From assembly GCA_003154155.1 (NCBI GenBank), contig PMCM01000112.1, forward strand, positions 1-32,565: DNA of 32,565 nt, written 5' to 3'. Origin of the DNA: Ignavibacteriota bacterium. Its GTDB lineage: Bacteria; Bacteroidota; Ignavibacteria; UBA10030; UBA6906. Below are positions 8,124-32,134 of this stretch, piece by piece (position 1 is the stretch's first letter; each line of letters opens with the position of its first letter). The position numbers and the translations under genes were made by a program. Below the pieces are notes generated by a model. It had not been told where the DNA came from. It did not search any database and saw nothing but the letters and a program-made list of their open reading frames with translations.

Positions 8124-8125
8124 AG

Positions 8126-8392: not shown

Positions 8393-8394
8393 GG

Positions 8395-14263: not shown

Positions 14264-15688
14264 ATGGCCCTCCCACCGCACATACTCGAGCAGGTTCTGG
14301 ATCTCGTTCCGGATATGTGTTTCGTGTTGCGCGCAGACCTGACGATTCTCGACTGTAACCGGAGAGCGCGCGCGGTGACCGGACTTGCGGCAACACTTCA
14401 CGGGACCGTAACATTTCCCGCGCTCCTCACATCTGATTCCCCCCGCCCCCCGTTCGATACGCTCAACAGCAACAACAGCTACAGCGAGACTGAGGTGAGA
14501 TTTCGCCAGACGGCCCGCCGGGCGATGGATGCACTCGTGTCCGTCCGCTGCATCGAGGAAAACGGTGAATCCCTGTTTTTTGTGTTCGGACGCGATATCT
14601 CGGAATCTAAGCAGCGCGAACTCGACCTGCTCCGTTTTTCGAATGTGGTACACTATACGGTGAATCCCATTCAGATCACCGACGCGCAGGGGAAGATGAT
14701 CTACGTGAACCCGGCGTTCGAACGGTCGACCGGGTACAGCAAGGAAGAGTTGATCGGGCGCAACCCCAGCGTCATCTCAAGCAAGAAGTACACGAAAGAG
14801 TTCTGGACCCGGGTGTGGGATGAGATCAGCTCCGGCAAGGTGTGGAACGCCGAAGTGGAAAATCGCAGGAAAGACGGCTCGCCGATATTTGCCCAGCTGC
14901 TGATTTCCCCCATCATGGATATGGACGGGAAGGTGATCGGGTATCTCGGATCGCATCGCGATATCACCGAACAGAAGGCGCTGGAGCAGCAGCTGATGCA
15001 TTCGCAAAAGATGGAGAGCATCGGCACGCTCGCCGCCGGCATCGCCCATGAGGTCGGCAACCCCCTGACCTCCATCTCTTCGATCGTCCAGGTGCTGCAA
15101 CGTACCATCGACGATGATTTTGCGCGCGACAAGCTGGGCATGGTGCAATCCCAGGTCCACCGCATTACCAAGATCATCCGCGACCTCGTCGATTTTTCCC
15201 GGCCATCGAATTACCAGATGCAACCCACCGACGTGACGAAAGTGCTGACCGATGCGGTGGAAATCGTCAAGATGGGGAAGAAGGCCAAACAGGTGACCTT
15301 CTACACGCACGTGCGCCAGCAGATCCCGCTGCTGTCCCTGGTGCCTGATCAGCTCGCCCAGGTGTTCATCAACATTCTGTTGAATGCCGTCGATGCCCTG
15401 CAGGGCAAGAAGGGATCCATCACCACGGAATTTGAACGGGATGACGACTCGGTGAAAATCACCATTGCTGATGACGGCGAAGGCATTCCTGCCGAGAACC
15501 TGACCAAGATTTTTGAACCCTTCTTTACGACGAAACGTGTCGGAGAGGGGACCGGGCTGGGCCTTTGGGTCAGCTACGGCATCATCAGGAGTTTTCGTGG
15601 CGACATCGCGGTTTCGAGTGAGCGGGGGAGAGGAACCTCCTTCTGCATCCAGGTACCCCTGAATCCGAAGGACTATTCACATGGCTGA
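14264..15688 (+). CDS. PAS-PAS sensor histidine kinase, NtrB-like, cytoplasmic
   Basis: This 474-residue kinase has no signal peptide or membrane segment, so it probably senses a cytoplasmic cue. Residues about 5-115 form a divergent PAS-like domain ending GRDISESKQ. Residues about 122-238 are a clear PAS/PAC module (NPIQITDAQGKMIYVNPAFE to GSHRDITEQK). The dimerisation/phosphoacceptor helix carries AHEVGNPLTS with His262. The ATPase domain has the N box NILLNAVDAL, the G1 box DDGEGIP, EPFFTTKR, and the G2 box GEGTGLGLW. Its last eight bases overlap the start of the next gene, so it is the cognate partner of the sigma-54 activator. No haem- or flavin-binding residues can be assigned to the PAS domains by eye. 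Confidence 0.93.
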   Translation: MALPPHILEQVLDLVPDMCFVLRADLTILDCNRRARAVTGLAATLHGTVTFPALLTSDSPRPPFDTLNSNNSYSETEVRFRQTARRAMDALVSVRCIEENGESLFFVFGRDISESKQRELDLLRFSNVVHYTVNPIQITDAQGKMIYVNPAFERSTGYSKEELIGRNPSVISSKKYTKEFWTRVWDEISSGKVWNAEVENRRKDGSPIFAQLLISPIMDMDGKVIGYLGSHRDITEQKALEQQLMHSQKMESIGTLAAGIAHEVGNPLTSISSIVQVLQRTIDDDFARDKLGMVQSQVHRITKIIRDLVDFSRPSNYQMQPTDVTKVLTDAVEIVKMGKKAKQVTFYTHVRQQIPLLSLVPDQLAQVFINILLNAVDALQGKKGSITTEFERDDDSVKITIADDGEGIPAENLTKIFEPFFTTKRVGEGTGLGLWVSYGIIRSFRGDIAVSSERGRGTSFCIQVPLNPKDYSHG

Positions 15689-17045
15689 ATCGATCTTGAT
15701 CGTCGATGACGAGGAAATCATCCGGGAATCGCTTTCCTTCGTTCTGGCAAAAGAAGGTTACCGGGTGCAGGACGCGGCGAACGGCCGCCTCGCGCTCGAG
15801 AAAGTCCGGGAGCAGGCATTTGATCTCGTCATCACGGATCTGGAAATGCCGGAGATGAAGGGGATCGAGCTGCTGGAGCAGGTGACGCTTCACAGCCCGG
15901 AAACGATGGTGGTCATCATCACGGCATATGGGTCCATCGACACCGCAATTGCGGCGTTGCGCAAGGGCGCCGTGGACTATATTCTGAAGCCCGTGGAGTT
16001 TGATGAGCTTATCGTGAAAATCAGCCGCCTTCTCGCGAGCCGGCGGTTGACGGTGGAAAACAAACTCCTGCGCGGCGAATTGCACCGCCAGTACAATTTC
16101 GACCAGATGATCGGTCAGAGTCCGGCAATGCAGCGTGTGTTTGAGACCATCAAGAAGGTCGCTTCGACGGACGGCACCGTGCTGATCAACGGGAAAAGCG
16201 GGACGGGAAAAGAGCTCGTTGCGCGCGCAATTCACTTTTCCAGCCGGCGCTCAACACGTCCCTTCATTGCGGTCAACTGCGGCGCGGTGGTGGAGAACCT
16301 CTTCGAAAGCGAACTCTTCGGCCACCGTCGCGGTGCGTTTACCGGGGCAACCATGGATAAGGAGGGGTTCTTCAAGGCGGCTGACGGGGGGACGATCTTT
16401 CTGGACGAAGTCAGCGAGATACCATTCCATCTGCAGGTGAAGCTGCTCCGCGCCATCGAGTTGAAAGAGATCACACCCGTGGGGATGTCGATGCCGTTGA
16501 CCGTCGATGTCCGCATTATCGCATCGACGAACAAGAACCTCCAAAAGGAAGTCGAGGCCGGCCGGTACCGCGAGGATCTCTTCTACCGGCTGAACATCGT
16601 CGAAATCAACCTGCCGTCGCTCACCGAGCGCGTGGACGACATCCCTCTGCTCGTCCAGCATTTCGTTGCGAAGTATGCACGGGAGATGACCAAGGACGTT
16701 CACGGTGTTGATACCGATGTCATGAAATGCCTGATCGGCCACGCGTGGAAGGGAGAAATCCGCGAGCTGGAGAACATCATCGAGCGGGCCGTGATCTTTG
16801 CCGAAGGATCCATCATCACGAAGAAAGAGCTGCCGGCGTTTTTCGATCAACGAACCGATGCCATCTACTCGTTTGATGCGCGGCGGTCGATGAAGGAAGC
16901 GGTGGACGATTTCGAACGCCAGTACATCGGACATGTCTTGCGCACCAACCAGTTCAACAAAGAACTAACGGCGAAGGCCTTGAAAATCAGCCTCTCATCG
17001 CTCTACAGAAAGCTCGAAGAATTGAACATCCCTTCGCAGGGTTAG
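15681..17045 (+). CDS. NtrC-family sigma-54-dependent response regulator
   Basis: This 454-residue activator has three domains. The receiver (1-120) has the acidic pocket DDEE, phospho-acceptor Asp53 and Lys103. The AAA+ sigma-54 interaction domain (about 140-375) has a Walker A GKSGTGKE at 171-178, the sigma-54-contacting GAFTGA at 218-223, Walker B GGTIFLDE at 236-243, and the arginine-finger region GRYREDLFYRLN. A Fis-type helix-turn-helix closes the protein (KELTAKALKISLSSLYRKLEE, about 427-447). The residue after the first Walker A glycine is lysine where most relatives have glutamate. It is translationally coupled to the kinase. Candidate sigma-54 promoters lie downstream at 17161, 18277 and 26836, making those genes likely targets. 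Confidence 0.95.
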   Translation: MAESILIVDDEEIIRESLSFVLAKEGYRVQDAANGRLALEKVREQAFDLVITDLEMPEMKGIELLEQVTLHSPETMVVIITAYGSIDTAIAALRKGAVDYILKPVEFDELIVKISRLLASRRLTVENKLLRGELHRQYNFDQMIGQSPAMQRVFETIKKVASTDGTVLINGKSGTGKELVARAIHFSSRRSTRPFIAVNCGAVVENLFESELFGHRRGAFTGATMDKEGFFKAADGGTIFLDEVSEIPFHLQVKLLRAIELKEITPVGMSMPLTVDVRIIASTNKNLQKEVEAGRYREDLFYRLNIVEINLPSLTERVDDIPLLVQHFVAKYAREMTKDVHGVDTDVMKCLIGHAWKGEIRELENIIERAVIFAEGSIITKKELPAFFDQRTDAIYSFDARRSMKEAVDDFERQYIGHVLRTNQFNKELTAKALKISLSSLYRKLEELNIPSQG

Positions 17046-17208: not shown

Positions 17209-17691
17209 ATGATTTTTCTCAAGAAGATTCTCGTCACGACGGATCTCTCCCCCCACTCGCTGGCGGCGGTGGAGTATGCACTTTCGTTTGGGACTCTGTA
17301 TACCTCGCGGCTCTACCTGCTTCTCGTGATGGAAAAGAGAGAAGCAGTGCATGCACGGGAAGCACATGTTCATTTCCGGACCGAGGAAGAGGCAACGAAG
17401 GCACTCGAGGAGTTCGCGCGCAATAACGTCCCGCATGATGTCCAGATGAATCTCGTCGTGCGGAAAGGAAATCCCGTTGAAGGGATCCTGCGTTTTGCGG
17501 GAGAGGAAGGGATCGACATGATCGTCATGGCCACACATGGTCATACCGGTCTGCGCCACATACTGATGGGCAACGTCACGGAAAAAGTCGTGCGCCAGTC
17601 CCGCATCCCGGTGCTGACAGTGAAACCCCGTCCGTTCCGGGAGAACGATATTCAAGATGAGGACGTGGAGAAAGATCTCCACCTCCGATGA
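17209..17691 (+). CDS. Universal stress protein (UspA family)
   Basis: The 160-residue product is a single Usp domain. It has KKILVTTDLSPHSLAAVEYA at the start, a middle VRKGNPVEGILRFA helix, then GIDMIVMATHGHTGLRHI and a C-terminal PVLTVKP strand. The nucleotide loop reads ATHGHTGLRHILMGN, differing from the G-x2-G-x9-G(S/T) consensus at the first glycine (A) and last position (N), so ATP binding is uncertain. A short acidic tail (ENDIQDEDVEKD) follows. It lies behind a sigma-54-type promoter and 22 bases ahead of a receiver-like gene, between the NtrB/NtrC pair and the cytochrome cluster. A role in energy-stress or respiratory signalling is plausible but inferred. Confidence 0.9.
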   Translation: MIFLKKILVTTDLSPHSLAAVEYALSFGTLYTSRLYLLLVMEKREAVHAREAHVHFRTEEEATKALEEFARNNVPHDVQMNLVVRKGNPVEGILRFAGEEGIDMIVMATHGHTGLRHILMGNVTEKVVRQSRIPVLTVKPRPFRENDIQDEDVEKDLHLR

Positions 17692-17713
17692 GAAGGCTGC
17701 GGGAACCCGGTCG

Positions 17714-18145
17714 ATGAAAAACCTTGCACATACAGAACCAGGAAAACCGTCGGTCTCGCCGGAAGGCGAATCCGCGGAAACCAAGAAAACAATCCTGCTG
17801 TACAGTCCGGATCTGAATTTCTGTTTCAGTCTTTCCATGTTGTTCCAGGATCGTTTCAACGTCATCACGACCACCAATGTCGGGATGTTGGATCGACTTG
17901 TGGCCGACTATTCCGCTGACCTGACGTTGGTGGATGCGGTGCCTTCGGAAAAACTGATCGAGCGGATCGAAGGACTGCGATCAATCAATCCGCGACTCCC
18001 AATCATCCTCCTGTACGTCTACAATTCCAAGGAGATGAACCTCGATCGGAAAATCCGGGCGCACGTCGACTCCGTGTTCTACAAGCCACTTGAAATTGCG
18101 CTCGTTTCCAGGAGAATAGAGGAATTGCTCATCCACGCGTCGTGA
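17714..18145 (+). CDS. Degenerate receiver-domain protein
   Basis: This 143-residue protein has a polar N-terminal extension of about 23 residues followed by one receiver-like fold without an output domain. The first strand reads TILLYSPDLNF, so two of the usual acidic-pocket aspartates are replaced by serine and proline. The position of the phosphorylated aspartate is kept (Asp74 in LTLVDAVP), as is the lysine (Lys124 in VFYKPLE). It may be unphosphorylated or use another signal. The start at 17714 was chosen because the longer frame overlaps the stress gene by 35 bases; GGGAA lies upstream. It probably shares the stress-gene transcript. Confidence 0.75.
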   Translation: MKNLAHTEPGKPSVSPEGESAETKKTILLYSPDLNFCFSLSMLFQDRFNVITTTNVGMLDRLVADYSADLTLVDAVPSEKLIERIEGLRSINPRLPIILLYVYNSKEMNLDRKIRAHVDSVFYKPLEIALVSRRIEELLIHAS

Positions 18146-18276: not shown

Positions 18277-18291
18277 TGGCATGTAGATTGA
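18277..18291 (+). promoter_or_regulatory. Sigma-54-type promoter of the cytochrome cluster
   Basis: TGGCAT (18277-18282), five bases, TTGA (18288-18291). The -24 GG and -13 G are kept and the -12 C is A, as at the two sister sites. The expected start near 18303 leaves a leader of about 25 bases before the ATG at 18328. Confidence 0.55.
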
Positions 18292-18327
18292 ACGTATTCT
18301 CTGAATAACAAGGGGTATGTGGGGTTC

Positions 18328-20463
18328 ATGGTGAAACGGTTCCTCCTGCTGTTGGTGCTCGGGTTGATTGCTGCGCCGTTTGCCGTTGCGCAATCGGATG
18401 CGGATTGTCTCGGCTGTCACGGCGATGCATCACTCAGCATGTCGCGTCAAGGGAAGAACATCTCCCTGCATGTTGACGCCGGGGCATTCGGAAAATCGGC
18501 GCACGCCGACCTGGGATGCGTCGCCTGCCATGAAGGCTTCAACCCCAACGAATTGCCCCACGCCGCAACGATCACCCCGGTAAACTGTTTCTCCTGCCAC
18601 CAGGACCACCAGCTTGAGCACTATGCGCAGAGCGTCCATGGTAAGGTCATTGAGGGAAAACCGGTGGCTGCCGGGTGTGTCGATTGCCACTCGAAACATG
18701 CGATCACGAAGATTACCGACCTCGAGCCGGGCAGGAGGAAGGAATTCGACCTTGCGCTCTGCTCGCGCTGCCACGGCGACGTTGCCGCACATTATCTCAT
18801 GTCGGACCACAGCAGGGCGTTTGCGAGCGGTGTCAAAGGCGCTCCCGGGTGCATTGATTGCCATGGCGAGCATGCAATCAGAGCCGGCAGCGACTCGCTG
18901 TCTGCGACATCCCGGATGCATGTCTCGGCGACATGTCTGAAATGCCATCTCGACAATCCCGAAGTCCGGGCGCGTGTCGGCCCGTCGGCCGGATTCATCG
19001 CCAGTTACGAGCAGAGCGTCCACGGCCAGGCGATCAAGAACGGAAATGAAGCGGCGGCGACGTGCATCGATTGTCACACCGCACACGAGGTGAAGAAGGG
19101 CGCCAACCCGGCGTCCGGCGTGGCGAAACAGAATATCGCATCGACATGTGGCCAGTGCCACGGCGATATCCGCGATCAGTATGAGGAGAGCATCCACGGA
19201 AAATCGCTCGCGCGCGGGATTACCGCTGCGCCGACATGCACCGACTGCCACGGTGAACATTTTATCCTCTCCCCGAAGGACGCGCGTTCGCCTGTCGCGG
19301 CGGCAAATGTTTCCACACAAGTCTGCTCCCCCTGCCACGCGTCGGTCAAGGTCACACAGAAGTTCGGCATGGCGAACGACCGCTATCAGTCGTTTGCCGA
19401 CAGTTACCACGGGCTTGCCAACAGCGCGGGCTCGGTGGTCGTGGCGAATTGCGCGAGCTGCCACGGCGTGCACGACATCAAGCCGTCGTCCGATTCCACT
19501 TCGCGCATTCATCCATCGCACCTTGCCCAGACATGCGGCAAGTGCCACCCGGGGGCGAACACCAATTTCACCCGGGGTGCGGTGCATGTCATCCCTGCCT
19601 CAGGTCAGGACTCGGTTCTGTATTTCGTGGCGAACTCGTATATCGTCCTGATTTTCGTGATCATCGGCGGGATGGTCCTCCACAACATCCTGGATTTTCT
19701 GAAAAAATCGCGCCGCCAGCTGGCCTACCGGCGCGGCGAGTTGCAGCGATCGCATGTTGCCCACCGGCTCTACGTCCGGATGACCGTACAGGAGCGGATA
19801 CAGCATGGGACGTTGCTTGTAAGTTTCATTACCCTGGTGCTGACCGGTTTTGCGCTGCGCTATCCGGATGCCTGGTGGGTTGCATCGATCCGCTCGATCA
19901 GCACCTGGATGTTCGAGTTCCGGGGGATCGCGCACAGGGTCGCCGCAGTCGTGCTTGTTACGGCAAGCCTGTACCATATCTACTACGTGTTGTTTGTGCC
20001 TCGCGGCAAGCAACTCATGCGGGATCTCCTGCCGCGCAGGCAGGATATTGCCGATGCGGTGGATATCCTGAAGTACAATTTCGGTTTTTCCAAGAGCAAG
20101 CCCCGTTTTGGCCGTTTCAGCTATATTGAGAAAAGCGAGTACTGGGCGCTTGTCTGGGGGACGTTCATCATGGGGCTTACAGGCGTTATCCTCTGGTTCG
20201 ACAACACATCGCTCAATCTGATCACAAAATTGTGGTGGGATGTGGCCCGGACGGTGCACTATTATGAAGCCTGGCTGGCAACGCTCGCGATTATCGTCTG
20301 GCACTTCTACTTTGTCATATTCAACCCGGACACCTACCCGATCAATCTGGCGTTTTGGAAGGGGACGTTAACCGAGGAAGAGATGGAGGAAGAGCATCCG
20401 CTGGAATTGGAAGAGATCAAGCGGAAGGAGATGGAGCAGGAACATCAGACGCCGAAAGCCTGA
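18328..20463 (+). CDS. 13-haem cytochrome c fused to membrane cytochrome b (CbcL-like layout)
   Basis: The 711-residue protein begins with a signal peptide (MVKRFLLLLVLGLIAAPFAVA). Residues 27-406 carry thirteen CxxCH sites (for example CLGCH at 27, CFSCH at 87, CIDCH at 175, CGQCH at 274, CGKCH at 403), so this half is periplasmic. The C-terminal half has about five membrane helices (roughly 432-455, 490-511, 537-557, 606-624, 647-666) with histidines 493, 536, 550, 644 and 659 as candidate b-haem ligands, as in cytochrome b561/FdnI-type domains. This resembles CbcL of Geobacter, a quinol-oxidising fusion with nine c-haems. A GTG three codons upstream is possible, but ATG 18328 gives the better signal peptide. 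It opens the electron-transfer cluster. Confidence 0.9.
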   Translation: MVKRFLLLLVLGLIAAPFAVAQSDADCLGCHGDASLSMSRQGKNISLHVDAGAFGKSAHADLGCVACHEGFNPNELPHAATITPVNCFSCHQDHQLEHYAQSVHGKVIEGKPVAAGCVDCHSKHAITKITDLEPGRRKEFDLALCSRCHGDVAAHYLMSDHSRAFASGVKGAPGCIDCHGEHAIRAGSDSLSATSRMHVSATCLKCHLDNPEVRARVGPSAGFIASYEQSVHGQAIKNGNEAAATCIDCHTAHEVKKGANPASGVAKQNIASTCGQCHGDIRDQYEESIHGKSLARGITAAPTCTDCHGEHFILSPKDARSPVAAANVSTQVCSPCHASVKVTQKFGMANDRYQSFADSYHGLANSAGSVVVANCASCHGVHDIKPSSDSTSRIHPSHLAQTCGKCHPGANTNFTRGAVHVIPASGQDSVLYFVANSYIVLIFVIIGGMVLHNILDFLKKSRRQLAYRRGELQRSHVAHRLYVRMTVQERIQHGTLLVSFITLVLTGFALRYPDAWWVASIRSISTWMFEFRGIAHRVAAVVLVTASLYHIYYVLFVPRGKQLMRDLLPRRQDIADAVDILKYNFGFSKSKPRFGRFSYIEKSEYWALVWGTFIMGLTGVILWFDNTSLNLITKLWWDVARTVHYYEAWLATLAIIVWHFYFVIFNPDTYPINLAFWKGTLTEEEMEEEHPLELEEIKRKEMEQEHQTPKA

Positions 20464-20516
20464 AAGAGTGGCATCTTTTTGTGATTTGCACTACATTCTC
20501 GACATCAACACACTTT

Positions 20517-20521
20517 GGAGG
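20517..20521 (+). promoter_or_regulatory. Strong ribosome binding site fixing the tetrahaem cytochrome start
   Basis: GGAGG lies nine bases before ATG 20531. It selects the MKALTVV signal-peptide start over an upstream in-frame start at 20468 that has no signal-peptide character. Confidence 0.8.
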
Positions 20522-20530
20522 AGAGGTTCA

Positions 20531-21067
20531 ATGAAAGCACTCACTGTAGTTCTGGCGATCGTCCTGACCGTGGCTCTTCTTGCTGGAACCTCGGTTGCCG
20601 AGAACAAGTTTGTCGGCACCAAATCCTGCGCTATGTGTCATAAGGCGAAGGACAAGGGCGAAGCATTCACCATCTGGCAGAAGAGCGCGCACGCGAACGC
20701 TTTTAAGACGCTCGAAGGAGATGCGGCAAAGAAGATCGCCAAGGAAAAAGGCATTGCCAAGCCGCCGTCAGAAGCCCCGGAATGCCTGGCCTGCCATGTG
20801 ACGGGCGGCGGAGCTGCGAAGAATGTCGACGCCACATTCGACATGAAAGAAGGCGTGACGTGTGAGGCATGCCACGGCGCAGCTTCCGGATTCAAAATGA
20901 TTCACACGAAGGCCGAGAACAAGGCGAAAGCAGTGGAAGCCGGCCTGTTGACGGGTGACAAGGCAAGGATCTGCGAGACCTGCCACAATGCGAAGAGCCC
21001 GACGTTCAAGGGTTTCAAGATGGCAGAGATGTGGGCAAAGATCGAACACAAGCTTCCGAAGAAGTAG
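20531..21067 (+). CDS. Tetrahaem cytochrome c554-type protein
   Basis: The 178-residue product has a signal peptide (MKALTVVLAIVLTVALLAGT, cleaved near SVAE) and four CxxCH sites: CAMCH (33), CLACH (85), CEACH (111) and CETCH (148). The opening FVGTKSCAMCHKAKDKGEAF and the spacing resemble the cytochrome c554 family of small soluble periplasmic tetrahaem proteins. Known c554 takes electrons from hydroxylamine oxidoreductase in nitrifiers, but relatives occur widely and no such partner is here. Its place between two membrane quinol-oxidising cytochromes suggests a shuttle carrying electrons across the periplasm to the 14-haem protein. It lies 67 bases after the 13-haem gene and is followed by a hairpin that may reduce transcription of the genes beyond. 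Confidence 0.9.
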   Translation: MKALTVVLAIVLTVALLAGTSVAENKFVGTKSCAMCHKAKDKGEAFTIWQKSAHANAFKTLEGDAAKKIAKEKGIAKPPSEAPECLACHVTGGGAAKNVDATFDMKEGVTCEACHGAASGFKMIHTKAENKAKAVEAGLLTGDKARICETCHNAKSPTFKGFKMAEMWAKIEHKLPKK

Positions 21068-21090
21068 GCGGGCGGTAACCGGTATGAGCC

Positions 21091-21134
21091 AAGGGGGTAA
21101 CCGGAGCCCTGTCTCCGTGAGCCCCCTTTGCTTT
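21091..21134 (+). terminator. Hairpin within the cytochrome cluster (partial terminator)
   Basis: AAGGGGG (21091-21097) pairs with CCCCCTT (21122-21128), enclosing CGGAG/CTCCG around a 6-base loop. The tail TTTGCTTT is only partly U-rich. It lies 23 bases after the tetrahaem gene stop and may give that gene more transcript than the following ones. Confidence 0.6.
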
Positions 21135-21163
21135 GTCTAGAGATCATTGAGGCCCTGACGCCG

Positions 21164-22663
21164 ATGGCAAAACGCAGACTACCTGATTTGCTGTACAACC
21201 CGATGAGTATTTTCGGCGGTGTACTGGCGGCTGTCTGTTTGTTGACGATCATTTTTCTGACCTGTGTGGATCTGTTTCAGTACCAGCCCCCAGCGTACAT
21301 CGGCATCATCTCGTACGTTCTTCTTCCTGTTCCCCTGTTGCTGGGGCTCTGTGTGCTTGTTCTCGGTGTCCTGCGGGAACGCCGTCGCCGGCTCCGGGGC
21401 GAGGCCGCAAGCAGGTTGCTGTTCACGATCGATCTGAATCTTCCGCGGCAGCGGGCCGCGATGACGCTCTTTTCGGCCGTTGCCTGCATCGTGCTCCTGT
21501 TTACGGCATACGGGAGCTACCGGGTGTTTGAATGGACAGAATCCGTCGCGTTCTGCGGCACCACCTGCCACACGGTGATGGAGCCGGAGTACACCGCCTA
21601 CCAGGGTTCCCCGCATGCCCGGGTCAAATGCGTTGAGTGCCACGTGGGTTCGGGCGCCGGCTGGTATGTCCGGTCCAAGCTTTCCGGGGCGTATCAGATT
21701 TATGCGGTCATGACCAACGTCTATCCGCGGCCGATCCCGACGCCGATCCAGAACTTGCGTCCTGCCCAGGAGACCTGCGAACAGTGTCACTGGCCTTCGC
21801 ATTTCTCCGGCGAAAAGAAGCTCGTCAACCGGTATTTCAAGTCGGATGAACAGAACACTCCCTGGACGATAGCGTTGATGATGAAAATCGGCGGCGGCAA
21901 CGAAGCGCGCGGGCCGTCGGGCGGCATCCACTGGCATATGAATATTGCCAACGAAGTCCGGTATGTGGCGGTTGACACCTTGCACCAGAATATTCCGATC
22001 GTCTCGATCCGTAACCGGAAGAGCGGCGAGGTGACCGAGTATGTAGCCGAGAGTGCGGCGGCGGATGCGGGGAAGCTCCGTGCACAGTCGTGGTCCACCA
22101 TGGACTGCATCGATTGTCATAACCGGCCTTCGCACATCTATCGCCCTCCCATGCGTATTGTGGACCAGAGCATGGCGGTGGGACGGATTTCCCCGGCGCT
22201 TCCGCATGTGCGCGAACAGGGGATTGCGATTCTTTCGCAGCCATATGCGACGACCGCGGGTGCCGTCGACAGCATCGCGCTGCAATTGCGTGCCTTCTAT
22301 GCGTCCTCCTATCCTCTGATCGCGGCATCACAGGGTGCGCTGGTGGACGCCGCGATTGCGGAATTGCAGGCGCAGTACCGGAGGAACTTCTTCCCGACCA
22401 TGAACGTCAAGTGGAGCGCCTATCCGAACAACATCGGCCACATGACGGATCTGGGTTGTTTCCGGTGTCATGACGGGAAGCACGTCAGCGCCGACGGCCG
22501 CAGGATCTCGAAGGACTGCAACAGCTGTCACACCATTGTGTACCAGGGAACGGAGCCCGTGCCGCAGACGCTGACGGTGGCAGGCCTTCCGTTCCAGCAT
22601 CCCGAAGACATCGGCGATGCCTGGCAGCAGACCAATTGTGTCGAATGCCACTCGGGACTATAA
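21164..22663 (+). CDS. 7-haem NapC/NirT-family quinol dehydrogenase (ImcH-like)
   Basis: The 499-residue product has three N-terminal membrane helices (about 14-36, 46-70, 98-118) and then a periplasmic cytochrome domain. Six CxxCH sites (CVECH 156, CEQCH 205, CIDCH, CFRCH, CNSCH and a terminal CVECH) join one atypical CGTTCH (131-136) right after the third helix, where NapC/NrfH relatives have their quinol-proximal haem. It is followed by TVME, keeping a nearby methionine. Three helices, seven haems and a NapC core match the layout of ImcH, the inner-membrane quinol oxidase of Geobacter used with high-potential acceptors. The start ATG 21164 follows TTGAGG; the longer frame runs into the hairpin. 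It probably passes electrons to the porin-cytochrome trio downstream. Confidence 0.88.
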   Translation: MAKRRLPDLLYNPMSIFGGVLAAVCLLTIIFLTCVDLFQYQPPAYIGIISYVLLPVPLLLGLCVLVLGVLRERRRRLRGEAASRLLFTIDLNLPRQRAAMTLFSAVACIVLLFTAYGSYRVFEWTESVAFCGTTCHTVMEPEYTAYQGSPHARVKCVECHVGSGAGWYVRSKLSGAYQIYAVMTNVYPRPIPTPIQNLRPAQETCEQCHWPSHFSGEKKLVNRYFKSDEQNTPWTIALMMKIGGGNEARGPSGGIHWHMNIANEVRYVAVDTLHQNIPIVSIRNRKSGEVTEYVAESAAADAGKLRAQSWSTMDCIDCHNRPSHIYRPPMRIVDQSMAVGRISPALPHVREQGIAILSQPYATTAGAVDSIALQLRAFYASSYPLIAASQGALVDAAIAELQAQYRRNFFPTMNVKWSAYPNNIGHMTDLGCFRCHDGKHVSADGRRISKDCNSCHTIVYQGTEPVPQTLTVAGLPFQHPEDIGDAWQQTNCVECHSGL

Positions 22664-22714
22664 GCCGTGCGGAGAGGTGAACAACGATCAGGTGGTCATG
22701 AAAGGGAATCGGGT

Positions 22715-24025
22715 ATGAAAGGAACACGCCTCCTCGGCCTCGCTCTCCTGGTGACGCTCGGAGCGGCGATGGCTGCAGCCCAGTTGGTGACGGGGCGATT
22801 GGTGACCTCCTTCTACGCCTGGGAGCGCTTCGACACCGTCGGCACGTCGCAGCAATCGGTGCGGGCATTCCAGGCCGTCCAGTTGTCGATCGCCCAGGGT
22901 GATGTGTCCCTGAACACCTCCCTCATGGGTACCTCCAACCTCGTGGGCGCATTCGGCGATGTCGGCAGGGTGCGCTTCTACAATCTGTTTCTCAGCTGGC
23001 TCAACATCGGCAAGATGGTCGACCTCCATCTGGGCCGTCAGTTCGTGTATGCCGGGGTCGGCAATGGCACGATCGACGGCGTGATGGCCCAGGCGCATTT
23101 CCTGCAACGGGCCGTTACGGTGACGGGTTTCGGCGGCGCCACGGTGGGGCCGGACTTTACCGGTGTGCGGAGCGACATGCACGACAATTACCACTTCGGC
23201 GGGCAGGTGCTCACGACGCTGATTCCGAACACGCGGTTGGGATTGAGCTATGCCAACCGGCGTGAAGCCCGGGATCCGTACTGGACGTTGCGGACACGGG
23301 ACACCACCTATGCCGCGTACGCGTACTATGTCGCTCCCTATGCCGATGCAGAGGAGCTGGGCAGCGCGGATGCGTCGTACACCCTGCGAGACCGGCTTTC
23401 GGTCTACGGCCGGTACGACTATGACTTCAAGAACGACCGGACATCGCGGGCACAGGGAGGGGTGCGTGTGAATGTGACCGGGGCGCTGACGCTGACCGGC
23501 GACTACATCCACCGGATTCCGGTGATCTCCTACAATTCCATCTTTTCCGCCTTCGTGGCGAATGCCGTCGACGAGCTGGAAGGGGGTGTGGAATACGGCT
23601 TCACGCCGCTTCTCCGCGCCTTCGGGCGCGTCGCCAGCGTGAAATACAGCGACGACAAGAGCACCCGGTGGTCGTTCGGGGTGAACAGCGGCTATGGAAG
23701 CCTGAGTTACTCGGGCAGTGACGGGTATGCGGGCGAGCTGCAGTCGCTGAGCATCCAGGGGACATACCCGCTGTTCGGGCGGGTTGTTGTTCCCAGCGCG
23801 GGCATCTCGTACGCCTCGTACCGTTTGAGCGCAGAAAGCTCACGGGACAACGCTCTGGGCATAGTGGTCGGGGCGATGGTGCGTCCGGCCACGGCGTTCA
23901 GTTTCGACGTGCAGGGACAATGGCTCAGCAACAAATTACTGCAGCAGGACATGCGCCTGCAGATCAGGCTGATGTACTGGTTCGCACAACGGCTCTCGAT
24001 TTTTAATGGGGAGGGTAAGCAATGA
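22715..24025 (+). CDS. Outer-membrane beta-barrel, porin of a porin-cytochrome complex
   Basis: The 436-residue product starts with a signal peptide (MKGTRLLGLALLVTLGAAMA, ending AAAQ) and has no haem motif. The remainder alternates short amphipathic strands rich in Y, F, G and S with turns, for example LHLGRQFVYAGVG, LGLSYANRREARD, LSVYGRYDYDFKND, LTLTGDYIHRIP and LQIRLMYWFAQRLSIF, as expected for an outer-membrane barrel of perhaps 16-20 strands. It does not end in the usual aromatic residue. Its stop overlaps the next cytochrome gene as ATGA, and a multihaem lipoprotein follows, which is the gene order of porin-cytochrome conduits such as OmbB-OmaB-OmcB. The role as haem-sheathing porin is inferred from this context. 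AGGGAA lies upstream of ATG 22715. Confidence 0.8.
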   Translation: MKGTRLLGLALLVTLGAAMAAAQLVTGRLVTSFYAWERFDTVGTSQQSVRAFQAVQLSIAQGDVSLNTSLMGTSNLVGAFGDVGRVRFYNLFLSWLNIGKMVDLHLGRQFVYAGVGNGTIDGVMAQAHFLQRAVTVTGFGGATVGPDFTGVRSDMHDNYHFGGQVLTTLIPNTRLGLSYANRREARDPYWTLRTRDTTYAAYAYYVAPYADAEELGSADASYTLRDRLSVYGRYDYDFKNDRTSRAQGGVRVNVTGALTLTGDYIHRIPVISYNSIFSAFVANAVDELEGGVEYGFTPLLRAFGRVASVKYSDDKSTRWSFGVNSGYGSLSYSGSDGYAGELQSLSIQGTYPLFGRVVVPSAGISYASYRLSAESSRDNALGIVVGAMVRPATAFSFDVQGQWLSNKLLQQDMRLQIRLMYWFAQRLSIFNGEGKQ

Positions 24026-25230
24026 AGCGGCGATCCTCTGTCATTCTCCTGGTCGCGGCCGGCGTGCTCGTATCGGCGGCGGTGGCGTTTCGTCCGACTG
24101 CCCGGCCGGGGTGGACCGTGCCGGACGACAGCAAACAGTTGAAGTTTTCCCACAAGACACATATCGAGGGCGCCGGCATCGGCTGCGAAACATGCCACCC
24201 GAATGCGTCCGCCAGCAAACTTGCCAGCGACAATCTGCGCAGCGTGCACGACAACTGCACTTCCTGTCATGAAGAGCAACTGAACAACCAGTGCGATTTC
24301 TGTCACAAGGATCCGGAGAACATCCAGGTCGCCCCTGCGCAGTTGCGCGAGCTGAATTTCTCGCACGAGCGCCATTTGAATATGAAGAATGTGCAGTGCA
24401 CCACGTGCCACACCCATTTGAACGAGGTAGATGTTGCCGGGCAGGAGAACATGCCCGACATGGCGACGTGCGCGACCTGCCACAACGACCGGAATGTCAG
24501 CAACGCCTGCGAATCGTGCCACACGAGCGTCGCGCAGTTGATACCGCCCGATCATCTGCAGGCGGGCTTCAAGAGGGACCACAAGAATCTTACGCGGCTG
24601 GGGGCCATGGAAACGAACTGTGCCACCTGCCACACGCAGAGTTTCTGCGGTGAATGTCACGATCCGGGTGCCGTCATCCAATTCGGGAAGGGCGCGATGA
24701 TGAGTGATCCCACCCCGCGGGTCTTCCCCGGCACGACCGCTCCGCAGATGAATCTGGAGCGTGCGCACGATCTGAACTACCGTTTCACGCACGGTATCGA
24801 TGCGAAATCCAAGGCCTCCGAGTGCTACACCTGTCATTCCGCCCAGGAGTTCTGCGGTGAATGCCACGAGGCCGGCGACAACATCACGTCCCGTTCCATC
24901 AAACCGGCGTGGCATCTGGGAGCCGGCTTTACGACCCTCGGCGTCGGGAGCGGTGGCGGGCGGCATGCCGAACTTGCGCGGCGCGACATTGAATCATGCG
25001 TCAGCTGCCACGATGCTCAGGGGAACGACCCGGTATGCATCACCTGTCACACCGATGGTGACGGCATTCGCGGCACGGATCCGCGGACACATCCTGCGGG
25101 CTACATGCAAGGCGAACACGGGCCGTGGCACGTCAACGGCGGCGCCACATGCTATAACTGCCATACCGACCTGAATGCCCATCCCGGCGGGGTCAAAGGC
25201 AGAAACTTCTGCGGCTATTGCCACGGCTAA
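24022..25230 (+). CDS. 14-haem periplasmic cytochrome c of the porin-cytochrome complex
   Basis: The 402-residue product starts MKRRSSVILLVAAGVLVSAA, a signal peptide or uncleaved anchor without a lipobox cysteine. It contains fourteen CxxCH sites, in order CETCH, CTSCH, CDFCH, CTTCH, CATCH, CESCH, CATCH, CGECH, CYTCH, CGECH, CVSCH, CITCH, CYNCH and CGYCH, the last ending the protein. Several free histidines in FSHKTH- and FSHERH-like segments fit sixth-ligand positions of cytochrome c3/c7-type packing. Overlap with the porin gene by four bases suggests fixed stoichiometry. By analogy with OmaB or MtrA it would sit inside or below the barrel and accept electrons from periplasmic carriers. The haem count exceeds that of OmaB (8) and MtrA (10). 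Confidence 0.9.
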   Translation: MKRRSSVILLVAAGVLVSAAVAFRPTARPGWTVPDDSKQLKFSHKTHIEGAGIGCETCHPNASASKLASDNLRSVHDNCTSCHEEQLNNQCDFCHKDPENIQVAPAQLRELNFSHERHLNMKNVQCTTCHTHLNEVDVAGQENMPDMATCATCHNDRNVSNACESCHTSVAQLIPPDHLQAGFKRDHKNLTRLGAMETNCATCHTQSFCGECHDPGAVIQFGKGAMMSDPTPRVFPGTTAPQMNLERAHDLNYRFTHGIDAKSKASECYTCHSAQEFCGECHEAGDNITSRSIKPAWHLGAGFTTLGVGSGGGRHAELARRDIESCVSCHDAQGNDPVCITCHTDGDGIRGTDPRTHPAGYMQGEHGPWHVNGGATCYNCHTDLNAHPGGVKGRNFCGYCHG

Positions 25231-25246
25231 GGAGGGCGGAACACTC

Positions 25247-26641
25247 ATGAGAGCATTACTGCGGTTGAGGGGTACCGGCATTCTCATCGCGCTCCTGTTG
25301 GTAGGAGCCGCGGGATGCAGCAAACTGAAAGATGATCTTCCGGCGGCGGACAAGACCGCATCGCAAATCCATGACCCCGGCTGGAACGATCCGACATCGG
25401 CCAATTTCCACGGCGTGGTGCTGCATGCAGACAACTACCAGTACAACCAATGCGTGTCCTGCCATGCCAAGTCTTTTGGCGGCGGCACGAGCGGCGTGGG
25501 CTGTTTCACCTGCCATCAGTCGTTCCCCCACAAAGCCGGATGGTCCGATACCTCATCAACGAACTTTCACGGCAAATTCCTGCGGCTCGGCCTTGGTCAA
25601 TTGACCGATTGCGCATCGTGTCACGGCGCGGCGTTTGACGGCGGCACCAGCGGAAAATCGTGCTTTACGTGCCATGCGTCGTATCCGCATAATGCCGGGT
25701 GGATTGATCCCGCATCGGCCGTCTCTCACGGCAAATTCCTGAAAGCAAAGAGCTGGGATACCGGCGAATGCGCGCGCTGCCACGGCGCGAACTTTTCGGG
25801 CGGTACCAGCGGAAAATCCTGCTTCACCTGTCACCCTGCATACCCGCATACGGTGTTTGCGTCATCCTCGGGACACGCGGGATACCTGTATACCCAGGGC
25901 TATCCCCTGGCGCAGTGCAAAACCTGCCACGGGGCTTCGTATGCCGGCGGCACCGTTGTGAATGTGTCGTGTAGTTCCGCCGGATGCCATGCGGACAATA
26001 CGGGAACGCCGAAGTCTCCCGAAGCCTGCAACACGTGTCACGGTCAGTTCCTTGCGTCGGCGAGTGACGCCCTCTCCGCGGCGCCCCCCAAGAGTGTGCT
26101 GGGTGACTCTGCGACCACGGTGCGCGGTGTGGGTGCCCATGCGAAACATTTGCTGTCCGGAACGCTCGGGAAGAGCGTCAAGTGCGTCGAATGCCATACG
26201 GTCCCCACGACGTTGTTTGCGACCGGCCATGTCGATACGCAGTTGCCGGCGGAAGTTGTGTTCAATGATACGCTGGCGCGCCTGGTCACTGGTGGCGGCA
26301 CATTCGTTCCGAACCCGACATACAATGCCACATCCCTTACGTGCGCGAACACATATTGCCACGGCAAATGGCAGCTCAAGAAGTCGGGTCCGTACGCGGC
26401 ATTCTTCACCACCGATTCCGTCATGGTAGGCGCAGCGAACGCACCGTCATGGACCAGCGGCGCTTCAGGCGCGGCGTGCGGGAGCTGCCACGGACTGCCG
26501 CCAACCGGCCATCCCCCATCCTCCCTGAGCGATTGCCAGAACTGCCATGGCACCGTGGTGAACGGCTCGGGCCAAATCATCAACCATGCGTTGCACATCA
26601 ACGGCAAGGTCAATGTCTTCGGCCAGGAGCTTGCCTTCTGA
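25247..26641 (+). CDS. 13-haem outer-membrane lipoprotein cytochrome with CxxxxCH sites
   Basis: The 464-residue product has a lipoprotein signal with acylated Cys24 (LLLVGAAGCSK), eleven CxxCH and two CxxxxCH sites (CSSAGCH at 242, CANTYCH at 366), thirteen predicted haems. Residues 47-204 are three 53-residue repeats, each with a haem near the middle and a CFTCH after GGTSG; a diverged fourth copy runs to about 247 and ends in the first CxxxxCH. Mixed CxxxxCH/CxxCH proteins are known from Geobacter outer-membrane cytochromes. GGAGG lies 11 bases before the ATG, which is 16 bases after the 14-haem gene. It is probably the cell-surface terminal of the conduit, the counterpart of OmcB. A strong terminator follows. 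Confidence 0.9.
   Translation: MRALLRLRGTGILIALLLVGAAGCSKLKDDLPAADKTASQIHDPGWNDPTSANFHGVVLHADNYQYNQCVSCHAKSFGGGTSGVGCFTCHQSFPHKAGWSDTSSTNFHGKFLRLGLGQLTDCASCHGAAFDGGTSGKSCFTCHASYPHNAGWIDPASAVSHGKFLKAKSWDTGECARCHGANFSGGTSGKSCFTCHPAYPHTVFASSSGHAGYLYTQGYPLAQCKTCHGASYAGGTVVNVSCSSAGCHADNTGTPKSPEACNTCHGQFLASASDALSAAPPKSVLGDSATTVRGVGAHAKHLLSGTLGKSVKCVECHTVPTTLFATGHVDTQLPAEVVFNDTLARLVTGGGTFVPNPTYNATSLTCANTYCHGKWQLKKSGPYAAFFTTDSVMVGAANAPSWTSGASGAACGSCHGLPPTGHPPSSLSDCQNCHGTVVNGSGQIINHALHINGKVNVFGQELAF
25385..25858 (+). repeat. Three 159-bp coding repeats (53-residue dihaem units)
   Basis: Units at about 25385-25543, 25544-25702 and 25703-25858 encode the pattern D-x-x-S, HGKFL, CxxCHGAxF, GGTSGKSCFTCH, YPH. 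Units two and three agree most closely (GGTSGKSCFTCH is identical). Internal duplication appears to have built up the haem chain. Confidence 0.85.
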
Positions 26642-26681: not shown

Positions 26682-26723
26682 AATCCCGGCGCCGCTCTTG
26701 CGGGCCGGGATTCCTGCTTTTTC
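26682..26723 (+). terminator. Strong intrinsic terminator ending the cytochrome cluster
   Basis: AATCCCGGC (26682-26690) pairs perfectly with GCCGGGATT (26704-26712), with an inner CCGC/GCGG stem and TCTT loop, followed by CCTGCTTTTTC. It lies 40 bases after the lipoprotein cytochrome stop. Confidence 0.88.
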
Positions 26724-26761: not shown

Positions 26762-26835
26762 CCCCATTGGCACGGTCCAATTCATCCGAATGAGCCCCTT
26801 TTCAGGGTTTTGGCGTAGTCCTGACCCGGTTGAGG

Positions 26836-26850
26836 TGGCACACAACTTGA
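26836..26850 (+). promoter_or_regulatory. Sigma-54-type promoter of the haem-lyase operon
   Basis: TGGCAC (26836-26841), five bases, TTGA (26847-26850). It is the same variant as at 17161 and 18277. The predicted start near 26862 leaves a 24-base leader containing GGAG before ATG 26886. Confidence 0.6.
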
Positions 26851-26885
26851 CATTTGAAAGGTACCCAAGCATCTGTGGAGTATCA

Positions 26886-29111
26886 ATGACCGTTCTTGCA
26901 CATCTTGTTCTTTTGCTGGCCCTGTCAACCTCTGTGGCCGCCGGCGTGTTCTACTTCCGCGCCGCCTCCACAAACGATATGAGGTTGACTCTCCCCCGCT
27001 CCACGCTTCTTGCCAGTATCGTCCTTGTTCTCACCGCATCTGCCGTTCTGATCCTCCTGATCCTTCAGCACGATTTCAGCAACGGCTATGTGTACGGCTA
27101 CAGCGACCGGTCGCTTCCGCTTCACTATCTGCTGTCCAGCTTCTATGCGGGCCAGGAGGGCAGCTTTCTGTTCTGGAGCGTGTGTTCCGCCCTCATTGCA
27201 CTGGTTCTGATGCGGTCACGCAAAGGCACCCCGGCTGTCATGACCGTGTTTCTTCTTGCGCACTCGCTGCTTCTCCTCCTTGTGGTGGCAAAGTCGCCCT
27301 TCCGGTCGATCTGGGAGGTGTATCCCCAATTGCCCGCCGGGCAGTTGCCGGCGGACGGCCACGGCCTCAATCCGCTCCTGCAGAATTTCTGGATGGTCAT
27401 TCATCCCCCCGTGCTGTTTCTGGGATTTGCCTTGATGTCCGTGCCATTCAGCCAGGCCATCGCGGCGCTCTGGACAAAGGACTTTGACCTCCTTCCCCGT
27501 CAGGGTATGGGAGGGGTGTTGGCCGCCGTGCTGGTGCTCGGTCTGGGGATTATGCTTGGCGCCTACTGGGCCTACGGCGTGCTTGGCTGGGGCGGCTACT
27601 GGGGGTGGGATCCTGTGGAGAATTCCTCCTTGATTCCCTGGCTCACCGGCGTTGCGCTGGTGCATACGCTCGTGGCCCAGCGGCGGACCGGCAAGTATCG
27701 ACGAACGAATTTTCTGCTGGCCATCTCCTCCTTCTTTTTGGTCATCTACAGCACGTTTTTGACGCGAAGCGGGATTCTCGGCGACGCATCCGTCCATTCG
27801 TTCACCGATCCCGGTTCCACCGTTTACTGGCTCCTCCTCGTGTTCCTCGGCCTCATCGCTGCCGTCGGCATCACGATGCTGGTCCTCCGCCTGCGTGAGC
27901 TTTCGCCCGCACACGCCGCTTCGGGCTGGCTCACACGCGAGACCCTGCTTGCCGGCGGGGCCATCATGCTGCTGCTGAGTGCGGTCGTTATCCTCTTCGG
28001 CACAAGTCTTCCGATTTTTTCGAAAACGCGCGTGGAGCCGGCATTCTACGACAGTACCAACCTTCCTCTTGTCATCATCATGGCGCTCCTGATCGGCGTG
28101 AGTCTCCTGACGCAATGGGAGGAGCAGGATCTCGCCACGAGTGCACGGAAATCGTGGAAGGCCCTCCTGGCGGCCCTGCTGATGACGCTCGTGATCGTTG
28201 CCCTGGGAGTACGCGACGGGCTGAGCGCCGCGCTTGTCTTTACCGCCCTGTTTGCGATCCTCGTCAACGTCGAAAGCGGCGTACAGGGATGGCGGGGCGG
28301 CCTCCTCCTGCTGGGAGGAAAGCTGGCGCACATCGGCATCGCGCTCTTCCTGATCGGCGTGATCAGCTCCGGCAGATATAATGAGACCGCCCGGGTGAGC
28401 CTGCCGCTGCATCAGCCCGTTGAGACACTTGGGCATGCGCTGACCTACGACGGTTATACGGTCCGCCCCGACGGGAAATATGACTTCCAGGTGACGGCGA
28501 TGGCGGGCACGCGCCGCTTCGTCCTGCACCCCGTGATGTTCGATGCGCCCCAGCAGGGTGTTATGCGCAACCCGGACATCGCATCGACAATGACGTCGGA
28601 CTTTTACATTTCCCCGCTCTCCCTGGAAAATGCCGATGACGGTGCGACGGAAGAGGAACACGAGCTTGCCAAAGGCGTTGCCGCGATGGTGGGCGACGCG
28701 CGTCTCACGTTCGTCACATTCGACATGGGCCCGGACGCCGGAAGCAGCATGAGTCATGGCGGAACGATCACCGTCTCCGCAGTGGTGGACGTGCAACGGG
28801 GGAGCGCGAAGGAGACGATCCGGCCGTCGCTCACCCGGAAACAGTCGGGCGAGACAGTGTATGGCGCCGCGCACTCAGACCTGCTGGGCACGGAGGTACG
28901 GCTGCTCAAAATGAATATCGGCATGGAGGCAACGTCGCCCTCGCGCGTCGTTGTGGCATGTACCCGGTCTGACGCCGTGCCAGCACGGACGGAAGTGCTG
29001 ATGGTGGAGGCGAGCGTCAAGCCGTATATCATACTGTTGTGGGGTGGCACGGTAACGATGTTGTTGGGATGTGTACTGGCGATGATCAAACGCATGAGGG
29101 AGACAGCATGA
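26886..29111 (+). CDS. ccmF: CcmF-like cytochrome c haem lyase
   Basis: This 741-residue multi-span membrane protein belongs to the haem-handling CcmF/CcsA family. It has the CcmF N-terminal block SLPLHYLLSSFYAGQEGSFL, a conserved histidine in MVIHPPVLFLG (173), the tryptophan-rich haem-presenting WWD loop from W235 (WGGYWGWDPVEN), and a second histidine in ASVHSF (304). About a dozen hydrophobic helices precede a soluble domain at roughly 505-705, and a final helix closes the protein. CcmF attaches haem to apocytochrome CxxCH motifs in System I. The other ccm genes are not in this window. The frame is open 32 codons upstream, but that region contains the sigma-54-type promoter, and GGAG supports ATG 26886. 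Placement directly after 51 haem sites fits a maturation role. Confidence 0.92.
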   Translation: MTVLAHLVLLLALSTSVAAGVFYFRAASTNDMRLTLPRSTLLASIVLVLTASAVLILLILQHDFSNGYVYGYSDRSLPLHYLLSSFYAGQEGSFLFWSVCSALIALVLMRSRKGTPAVMTVFLLAHSLLLLLVVAKSPFRSIWEVYPQLPAGQLPADGHGLNPLLQNFWMVIHPPVLFLGFALMSVPFSQAIAALWTKDFDLLPRQGMGGVLAAVLVLGLGIMLGAYWAYGVLGWGGYWGWDPVENSSLIPWLTGVALVHTLVAQRRTGKYRRTNFLLAISSFFLVIYSTFLTRSGILGDASVHSFTDPGSTVYWLLLVFLGLIAAVGITMLVLRLRELSPAHAASGWLTRETLLAGGAIMLLLSAVVILFGTSLPIFSKTRVEPAFYDSTNLPLVIIMALLIGVSLLTQWEEQDLATSARKSWKALLAALLMTLVIVALGVRDGLSAALVFTALFAILVNVESGVQGWRGGLLLLGGKLAHIGIALFLIGVISSGRYNETARVSLPLHQPVETLGHALTYDGYTVRPDGKYDFQVTAMAGTRRFVLHPVMFDAPQQGVMRNPDIASTMTSDFYISPLSLENADDGATEEEHELAKGVAAMVGDARLTFVTFDMGPDAGSSMSHGGTITVSAVVDVQRGSAKETIRPSLTRKQSGETVYGAAHSDLLGTEVRLLKMNIGMEATSPSRVVVACTRSDAVPARTEVLMVEASVKPYIILLWGGTVTMLLGCVLAMIKRMRETA

Positions 29112-31841: not shown

Positions 31842-32132
31842 ATGGCGAGAGGTAAAGTGACATTTGACATCGAAACATGCAAAGGATGCGAAATCTGCAT
31901 CGATGCGTGTCCGCAGGGAAGCATCGCATTGTCCCCAAAAATCAATACCGGGGGGTATCATTACGCAGTGCTGATCAAAGACAACTGCACCGGGTGCATC
32001 AATTGCGCCCTGGTGTGCCCCGATGCCGTCATTACCGTCTACCGCGAGAAGAAGAAGGTCAAGACCCCCGTGGCGCGGATCACCAACGTGACGGAGAACA
32101 TCACCCTGACGATCGACGAGGAAAGGAAATGA
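31842..32132 (+). CDS. 2x[4Fe-4S] ferredoxin subunit of 2-oxoacid oxidoreductase
   Basis: The 96-residue product has two complete cluster motifs, [12 protein letters not shown] and [12 protein letters not shown], joined by a short linker, and a 30-residue polar tail. This is the layout of the small ferredoxin (delta-type) subunit of 2-oxoacid:ferredoxin oxidoreductases. GAGG lies six bases before the ATG, and vorB starts at the stop codon, so it is the first gene of a vor/kor operon. It passes electrons from the thiamine-diphosphate enzyme to soluble ferredoxin. Confidence 0.92.
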
Positions 32133-32134
32133 CC

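What the first reader, a model, noticed from the sequence alone, without database searches (positions are those of the whole stretch)
18328..26641. Complete candidate extracellular electron transfer locus with 51 c-type haem sites
Counted directly: 13 + 4 + 7 + 0 + 14 + 13 haem motifs in six consecutive genes. The order gives two inner-membrane quinol-oxidising cytochromes of different type (b-fusion and NapC-like), a small periplasmic carrier, then a barrel / periplasmic cytochrome / surface lipoprotein set. Geobacter encodes CbcL, ImcH and porin-cytochrome complexes at separate loci; here analogues of all appear side by side. That suggests a self-contained route from the quinone pool to the cell surface, perhaps with acceptor-potential-dependent entry points.
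Basis: partly seen in the sequence, partly recalled or inferred. Interest (0 to 1): 0.85.

Follow-up and report, generated by a model that had tools for sequence, protein, structure and literature searches.

The report
Ignavibacteria quinone-to-surface electron export locus
Six adjacent genes in an uncultured Ignavibacteria genome encode what looks like a complete wire for pushing respiratory electrons from the inner membrane to the cell surface; its parts are of known kinds, but the one-locus arrangement is conserved across the whole order and makes a tidy testable unit.

Summary
Six same-strand genes at 18328-26641 carry 13+4+7+0+14+13 = 51 c-haem motifs (48 CXXCH, one CX3CH, two CX4CH) against about 0.3 expected by shuffling. 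The genome is an Ignavibacteria MAG.

Gene A is a CbcL/MtrH-type fusion (13 c haems plus cytochrome b domain). C has all the published hallmarks of ImcH that could be tested (3 TM helices, one CX3CH, six CX2CH). B is a four-haem c554-type carrier. D is a 22-strand barrel. E is a 14-haem periplasmic cytochrome. F is a 13-haem lipoprotein. D/E/F correspond in type and order to the porin-cytochrome cluster already described in Ignavibacterium album.

Of 80 genomes searched from the order, 58 have A, C, D and E together and 10 have none; 37 have A, C and D on one contig. Many relatives add up to two further quinol-oxidising modules, so this locus is a reduced version, not an unusually complete one. 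The ImcH part does not share the family's history (AU p=0.002).

Function, electron direction, surface exposure and potential-dependence of the inlets are inferred. Verdict: new variant of a known kind.

The parts
18328..20463 (+). Gene A: CbcL/MtrH/MtoC-type fusion. Signal peptide, 13-haem periplasmic c domain, C-terminal cytochrome b (Ni_hydr_CYTB/FdnI-like) membrane domain
   Evidence: 13 CXXCH; PF01292 57 bits at residues 485-666, Cytochrome_C7, Cytochrom_c3_2, Paired_CXXCH; formate-DH gamma model TIGR01583 below its cut-off; invariant H493, H536, H550, H644, H659 in 18 orthologues; five hydrophobic peaks after the signal peptide
20531..21067 (+). Gene B: small periplasmic tetrahaem cytochrome of the c554 family, likely carrier
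   Evidence: 4 CXXCH, PF13435 Cytochrome_C554 67 bits, signal peptide, exactly 7 His; directly upstream of the porin in many relatives
21164..22663 (+). Gene C: ImcH-type NapC/NirT-family heptahaem cytochrome
   Evidence: 6 CXXCH + CX3CH, PF03264 49 bits, three N-terminal hydrophobic segments at residues 17-33, 51-64, 104-113 followed by the CX3CH at 131
22715..24025 (+). Gene D: outer-membrane beta-barrel (porin of a porin-cytochrome complex)
   Evidence: no haem motif; no Pfam/NCBIfam/PDB sequence match; AlphaFold model pLDDT 83.8 with 22 barrel strands after a signal peptide; Foldseek finds only generic outer-membrane barrels; overlaps E by 4 bases
24022..25230 (+). Gene E: 14-haem periplasmic cytochrome (402 aa), presumed wire through the barrel
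   Evidence: 14 CXXCH, signal peptide, 30 His; profile hits to 3ov0 (12-haem) and weakly to MtrA 6r2q_A; gene pair D-E found together in 60 genomes, D alone in 2, E alone in 0
25247..26641 (+). Gene F: 13-haem-motif outer-membrane lipoprotein with repeated dihaem units and a C-terminal CxxxxCH/CxxCH domain
   Evidence: 11 CXXCH + 2 CX4CH; PF09698/TIGR01904 over cut-off; lipobox AAGC followed by SKLKDDLP; C-x-x-L-[KRQ] tether conserved in most orthologues with a recognisable lipobox
26790..29111 (+). ccmF-like cytochrome c assembly gene, next to F here and in many relatives; accessory to the locus, perhaps a separate transcript
   Evidence: PF01578 and PF16327; conserved neighbour; weak terminator-like site at 26700-26717 between F and ccmF
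14264..17045 (+). PAS histidine kinase and NtrC-type (sigma-54 activator) response regulator upstream; candidate regulators
   Evidence: Pfam; adjacent to A in many relatives
18277..18292 (+). Degenerate sigma-54-like -24/-12 site upstream of A (TGGCATGTAGATTGAA)
   Evidence: the overall number of such sites in the window equals chance, but position and recurrence in relatives are suggestive

Best explanation
The locus encodes a linked extracellular respiration route. Menaquinol is oxidised in the inner membrane by two alternative multihaem cytochromes: A (CbcL-type, di-haem b domain fused to a 13-haem arm) and C (ImcH-type). Electrons pass through the periplasm, probably by the tetrahaem carrier B, to the 14-haem cytochrome E. 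[quoted passage not shown] Shown by sequence: the haem motifs, membrane and barrel domains, signal peptides, lipobox, gene order and order-wide conservation. Inferred: the complex D-E-F, the direction of flow, surface exposure of F, the acceptor, and any division of labour between A and C by potential.
For: Motif counts and domains. C meets all tested published ImcH features and A the CbcL/MtrH ones (PMC6295460; PMC9129911). D models as a 22-strand barrel, inside the 18-22 range given for Pcc porins (PMC4245776). E (402 aa, 14 haems) and F (atypical motifs) match in type the I. album Pcc cluster IALB_1839-1837 (14 haems, 400 aa). Among 80 genomes searched from the order A, C, D and E are present or absent together (58 all, 10 none; D-E p=5e-16). 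A, C and D lie on one contig in 37, within 20 kb in 32.
Against: No functional data. No complex or haem geometry could be predicted: the E model has pLDDT 60. D has no detectable sequence relation to MtrB/OmbB in PDB or Pfam, so barrel identity rests on fold and neighbours. In a few genomes D-E-F is unlinked to A and C (G022, G053). The C tree conflicts with the A tree, so the parts are not one co-inherited unit.
Confidence: 0.78

Rival explanations
1. The same parts run inward: electrons are taken from an extracellular donor (Fe(II), mineral, partner cell) and delivered to the quinone pool.
For: CbcL/MtrH/MtoC homologues occur in both Fe(III) reducers and Fe(II) oxidisers and no sequence feature separates the directions (PMC6295460); porin-cytochrome routes can be reversible (PMC8258643).
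Against: ImcH homologues had been found only in Fe(III) reducers (PMC6295460), and an ImcH-type gene is present here; described Ignavibacteria include iron, arsenic and nitrate reducers and are enriched on anodes (PMC7399161).
Confidence: 0.1
2. A and C are periplasmic-reductase feeders (nitrite, nitrate, tetrathionate or similar) that happen to lie next to an outer-membrane cytochrome set of separate function.
For: NrfH/NapC-family similarity of C; D-E-F is unlinked to A/C in some genomes of one family (G022, G053).
Against: No terminal reductase gene was recognised among the window genes scanned; A, C, D and E co-occur strongly across 80 genomes; the CX3CH + six CX2CH signature is that of ImcH, not of four- or five-haem NapC/NrfH/TorC.
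Confidence: 0.07
3. D is an ordinary solute porin or exporter and F a periplasm-facing lipoprotein, so there is no trans-outer-membrane conduit.
For: Foldseek best matches are FimD, AlgE, MOMP and OccD barrels; the Bacteroidota export motif K-(D/E)2 is present in F but at +5 to +7, not the optimal +3 to +5 position (PMC5080379).
Against: TM-scores to those barrels are only 0.3-0.55 at 7-13% identity, i.e. generic barrel likeness; no transporter family matches by sequence; D and E go together (60 both, 2 D only, 0 E only).
Confidence: 0.05

Closest known systems
Porin-cytochrome (Pcc) cluster of Ignavibacterium album IALB_1840-1837 (Shi et al. 2014, PMC4245776)
   Same: Periplasmic c-cytochrome next to a porin, a 14-haem 400-aa periplasmic cytochrome and an outer-membrane cytochrome with an atypical motif: the same types in the same order as D, E, F with a c-cytochrome beside them.
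Geobacter sulfurreducens CbcL, ImcH and OmbB-OmaB-OmcB
   Same: Same functional types: b/c fusion quinol oxidase, NapC-family CX3CH + six CX2CH quinol oxidase, porin + periplasmic + surface cytochromes.
Rhodoferax ferrireducens cymA-cymA-mtrH-mtrABC cluster (described in PMC6295460)
   Same: Two classes of quinone-reactive cytochrome in one gene cluster with an outer-membrane conduit.
   Different: Mtr-type barrel and decahaem cytochromes, CymA instead of ImcH.
Unnamed seven-gene 'Bacteroidetes_1' cluster from an anode community (PMC8258643)
   Same: Six multihaem cytochromes plus one beta barrel, best hits in Bacteroidetes or Ignavibacteriae; flagged as an uncharacterised EET cluster. Probably the same kind of locus.
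   Different: Gene identities not given in the passages read; sequences not compared.

Membership tests
ImcH (gene C) | Three transmembrane segments at the N terminus | tested here: met
   Hydropathy peaks at 17-33, 51-64, 104-113; criterion from PMC6295460
ImcH (gene C) | Atypical CX3CH next to the membrane domain plus (5-9, typically six) CX2CH; about 500 aa | tested here: met
   CGTTCH at 131 and six CX2CH in 499 aa; conserved 6+1 in orthologues
ImcH (gene C) | NapC/NirT family membership | tested here: met
   PF03264 49.4 bits, cut-off 24.1
ImcH (gene C) | Direct sequence identity to G. sulfurreducens ImcH and requirement for high-potential acceptors | not testable with these tools
   No named Geobacter protein was fetched; physiology needs a mutant
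CbcL/MtrH/MtoC (gene A) | Multihaem c domain fused to a FdnI/HydC-like di-haem cytochrome b membrane domain with conserved His | tested here: met
   13 CXXCH + PF01292 57.4 bits; five invariant His in the b region
CbcL/MtrH/MtoC (gene A) | Six transmembrane helices as in G. sulfurreducens CbcL | tested here: inconclusive
   Five clear hydrophobic peaks besides the signal peptide; homologues with five are described (PMC6295460)
Porin-cytochrome complex (D-E-F) | Porin-like barrel of 18-22 strands encoded next to a periplasmic multihaem cytochrome (5-14 haems) and an outer-membrane multihaem cytochrome | tested here: met
   22 strands; E 14 haems, F 13 motifs and lipobox; ranges from PMC4245776
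Porin-cytochrome complex (D-E-F) | Physical complex that conducts electrons across the outer membrane | not testable with these tools
   No complex prediction offered; E alone models at pLDDT 60
Mtr complex (MtrCAB) | MtrB-type barrel (28 predicted strands, PMC4245776) and decahaem MtrA/MtrC | tested here: not met
   22-strand barrel, 14-haem E; only a weak profile hit of E to MtrA 6r2q_A, E=6e-4
Bacteroidota surface lipoprotein (gene F) | Lipobox and export signal K-(D/E)2 at +3 to +5 | tested here: inconclusive
   Lipobox AAGC; KDD lies at +5 to +7 and the acidic pair is not kept in all orthologues (PMC5080379)

The most novel reading that the evidence does not exclude
Across an order of Ignavibacteria one modular locus carries up to four different quinol-oxidising inlets (CbcL-type fusion; split 19-haem c + b pair; ImcH-type; Rieske/cytochrome b/11-haem complex) feeding a single porin-cytochrome outlet. 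The inlets are gained, lost and swapped lineage by lineage like gears matched to acceptor potential, and the window shows the two-inlet form with an ImcH of a different lineage from that of many family members.
Probability: 0.35. Interest if true: 0.65.

Novelty: new variant of a known kind. Interest (0 to 1): 0.45.

Why it matters
Extracellular respiration outside Geobacter and Shewanella is mostly known as scattered cytochrome genes whose circuitry must be guessed. A locus that carries a whole route, conserved across an order found in sediments, aquifers and anode communities, gives an ordered parts list. It allows direct tests of which inlet serves which potential by comparing relatives with two, three or four inlets on the same outlet. 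It also shows that a long list of haem motifs here is normal for the group, not a special feature of this genome.

Tried and rejected
(1) 16S search to name the genome: none in the MAG; named instead through relatives of A. (3) Chance or frame artefact for the haem count: rejected. (4) Mtr-type complex: rejected on barrel size and haem number. (5) Sequence match of D to any transporter: none. (6) Structure of E: poor, Foldseek match only to the haem subunit of alternative complex III; used only as a caveat. (7) Sigma-54 control of A by the upstream NtrC-type regulator: suggestive in some relatives, degenerate in the window, site number at chance overall; not claimed. (8) Surface export motif of F: inconclusive. 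(9) 'One stop inside' flags for D and E in relatives: probably alignments running past natural stop codons, not pursued.
Full report
What is there. Motif counts are A 13, B 4, C 6+1, D 0, E 14, F 11+2, total 51. Three are non-canonical: one CX3CH in C and two CX4CH in F. Shuffling the proteins gives at most 0.13 motifs per protein.

Source. The window is bases 1-32565 of a 55.4-kb contig of a 4.24-Mb, 94% complete MAG without a 16S gene. The nearest named carriers of gene A (57-67% identity) are MAGs labelled Ignavibacteriae, Ignavibacteria or Bacteroidetes, so the organism is taken to be an uncultured member of the Ignavibacteria.

Gene by gene. A has a signal peptide, 13 CXXCH and a C-terminal Ni_hydr_CYTB domain, with five histidines in that region invariant in 18 orthologues. 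This is the architecture of CbcL/MtrH/MtoC, whose c-haem number is known to vary from 3 to 23 (PMC6295460) and whose Geobacter type has nine c haems and a di-haem b domain (PMC9129911). C has three hydrophobic segments, then CX3CH, then six CX2CH in 499 residues, and matches Cytochrom_NNT; these are the features described for ImcH homologues (PMC6295460). B is a c554-family tetrahaem protein. Its seven histidines allow three bis-His haems and one with an open or other ligand, as in cytochrome c554 (inference from knowledge of that family). D has no family match but models fairly confidently (pLDDT 83.8) as a barrel; I count 22 strands and treat 189-206 as a loop hairpin. Foldseek returns only generic outer-membrane barrels at TM 0.3-0.55. 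E has 14 haem motifs and 30 histidines, enough for bis-His ligation throughout; its profile finds a 12-haem cytochrome (3ov0) best and MtrA weakly. F is a lipoprotein with a serine after the lipid cysteine, repeated dihaem units and a CxxxxCH/CxxCH domain.

Conservation. Searches of 80 genomes (the window's own and 79 relatives from the order) find A in 68, C in 66, D in 62 and E in 60. All four are present in 58 and all four absent in 10; D and E are nearly inseparable (60 both, 2 D only, 0 E only, p=5e-16). The p-values ignore the relatedness of the genomes. A, C and D share a contig in 37 genomes, within 20 kb in 32. Many of the rest are split by contig ends, but in G022 and G053 the D-E-F set sits beside a complex I-like gene block on a different long contig, so linkage is common, not universal.

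The fuller version. In many relatives the space between A and D holds more: a 19-haem cytochrome with a separate b-type subunit, both related to A, and a Rieske-like protein + cytochrome b + 11-haem cytochrome trio. The query cytochrome b finds a match in 72 of the 80 genomes (some of them other cytochrome b proteins), but none in the window's genome. The 19-haem protein also has no orthologue there, only weak matches to A itself. The window is thus a reduced, two-inlet form; G006 (L090/L137) has the same layout. The absences carry the usual MAG caveat (94% complete).

History. On A the family's 15 sequences form one clade (support 95); on C the same family is rejected as one clade (AU p=0.002); on E the family is split, broadly by a 14-haem and a 12-haem type, without significance (p=0.48). 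G014 holds pieces of both C types, and L120 has two C genes in tandem. So ImcH-type genes have been duplicated and differently retained, or exchanged, inside an otherwise stable locus. These are quick trees, and two C sequences have long branches.

How it most likely works. Menaquinol is oxidised by A or C, electrons cross the periplasm by B to E, pass the outer membrane inside D, and leave through F. Steps shown: composition, topology signals, order and conservation. Steps inferred: complex formation, direction, surface exposure, acceptor. It is reasonable but untested, and homologues in another phylum need not keep the same division.

What is already known. The D-E-F set is of a kind described in 2014 from Ignavibacterium album, including the unusual 14-haem, 400-residue periplasmic member (PMC4245776). 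OmbB-like Pcc genes were reported in anode Ignavibacteria in 2020 (PMC7399161). A seven-gene cluster of six multihaem cytochromes and a barrel, with best hits in Bacteroidetes or Ignavibacteriae, was flagged as uncharacterised in 2021 (PMC8258643). CbcL- and ImcH-type genes were counted in Ignavibacteriae in 2018 (PMC6295460). Two inlet types beside a conduit are known in Rhodoferax ferrireducens (PMC6295460), and in Desulfuromonas acetexigens the ImcH and CbcL homologues have consecutive accession numbers, which suggests adjacency (PMC12133095; inference). I found no open-access paper describing the order-wide combined locus or its multiple inlets, but the library omits most subscription papers and preprints.

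Regulation. A PAS histidine kinase and an NtrC-type regulator lie upstream and stay next to A in many relatives. Sigma-54-like sites upstream of A are stronger than in shuffled sequence on average (46% versus 18% above threshold), but the window's own site lacks the -12 GC. This is a lead only.

Verdict. Observation confirmed; interpretation mostly right in kind, overstated in rarity and completeness. New variant of a known kind, interest 0.45.

Noticed in passing
L083, L084, L087, L091, L095 and others, between A and D: Relatives carry a 19-haem cytochrome + separate b subunit and/or a Rieske + cytochrome b + 11-haem trio in the same locus, giving up to four quinol-reactive modules; absent from the window's genome.
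   Followed up: partly
window 21164-22663 and orthologues: ImcH-type genes of the family fall in two lineages (62-71% versus about 51% identity to C); G014 holds fragments of both and L120 has two in tandem.
   Followed up: partly
L098, L099: In G022 and G053 the porin-cytochrome set D-E-F lies next to a nuoL-like (NADH dehydrogenase) gene block instead of A and C.
   Followed up: no
window 17657-18145: Small receiver-like protein with no Pfam match, conserved directly upstream of A in the family (50-80% identity), with a universal stress protein at 17209-17691 before it.
   Followed up: no
window 31842-32565: Ferredoxin followed by the start of a 2-oxoacid:ferredoxin oxidoreductase-like gene at the window edge.
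   Followed up: no
window 6345-8431: PTS enzyme I and HPr genes side by side, with no sugar permease found among the window genes scanned.
   Followed up: no
window 23980-24025: Porins of the window's nearest relatives carry a short C-terminal tail beyond the strand end at which most other orthologues stop.
   Followed up: no
G000 contigs C229, C9, C246, C32, C109: Further cytochrome c7-type matches elsewhere in the genome, so other multihaem cytochromes exist outside this locus.
   Followed up: no
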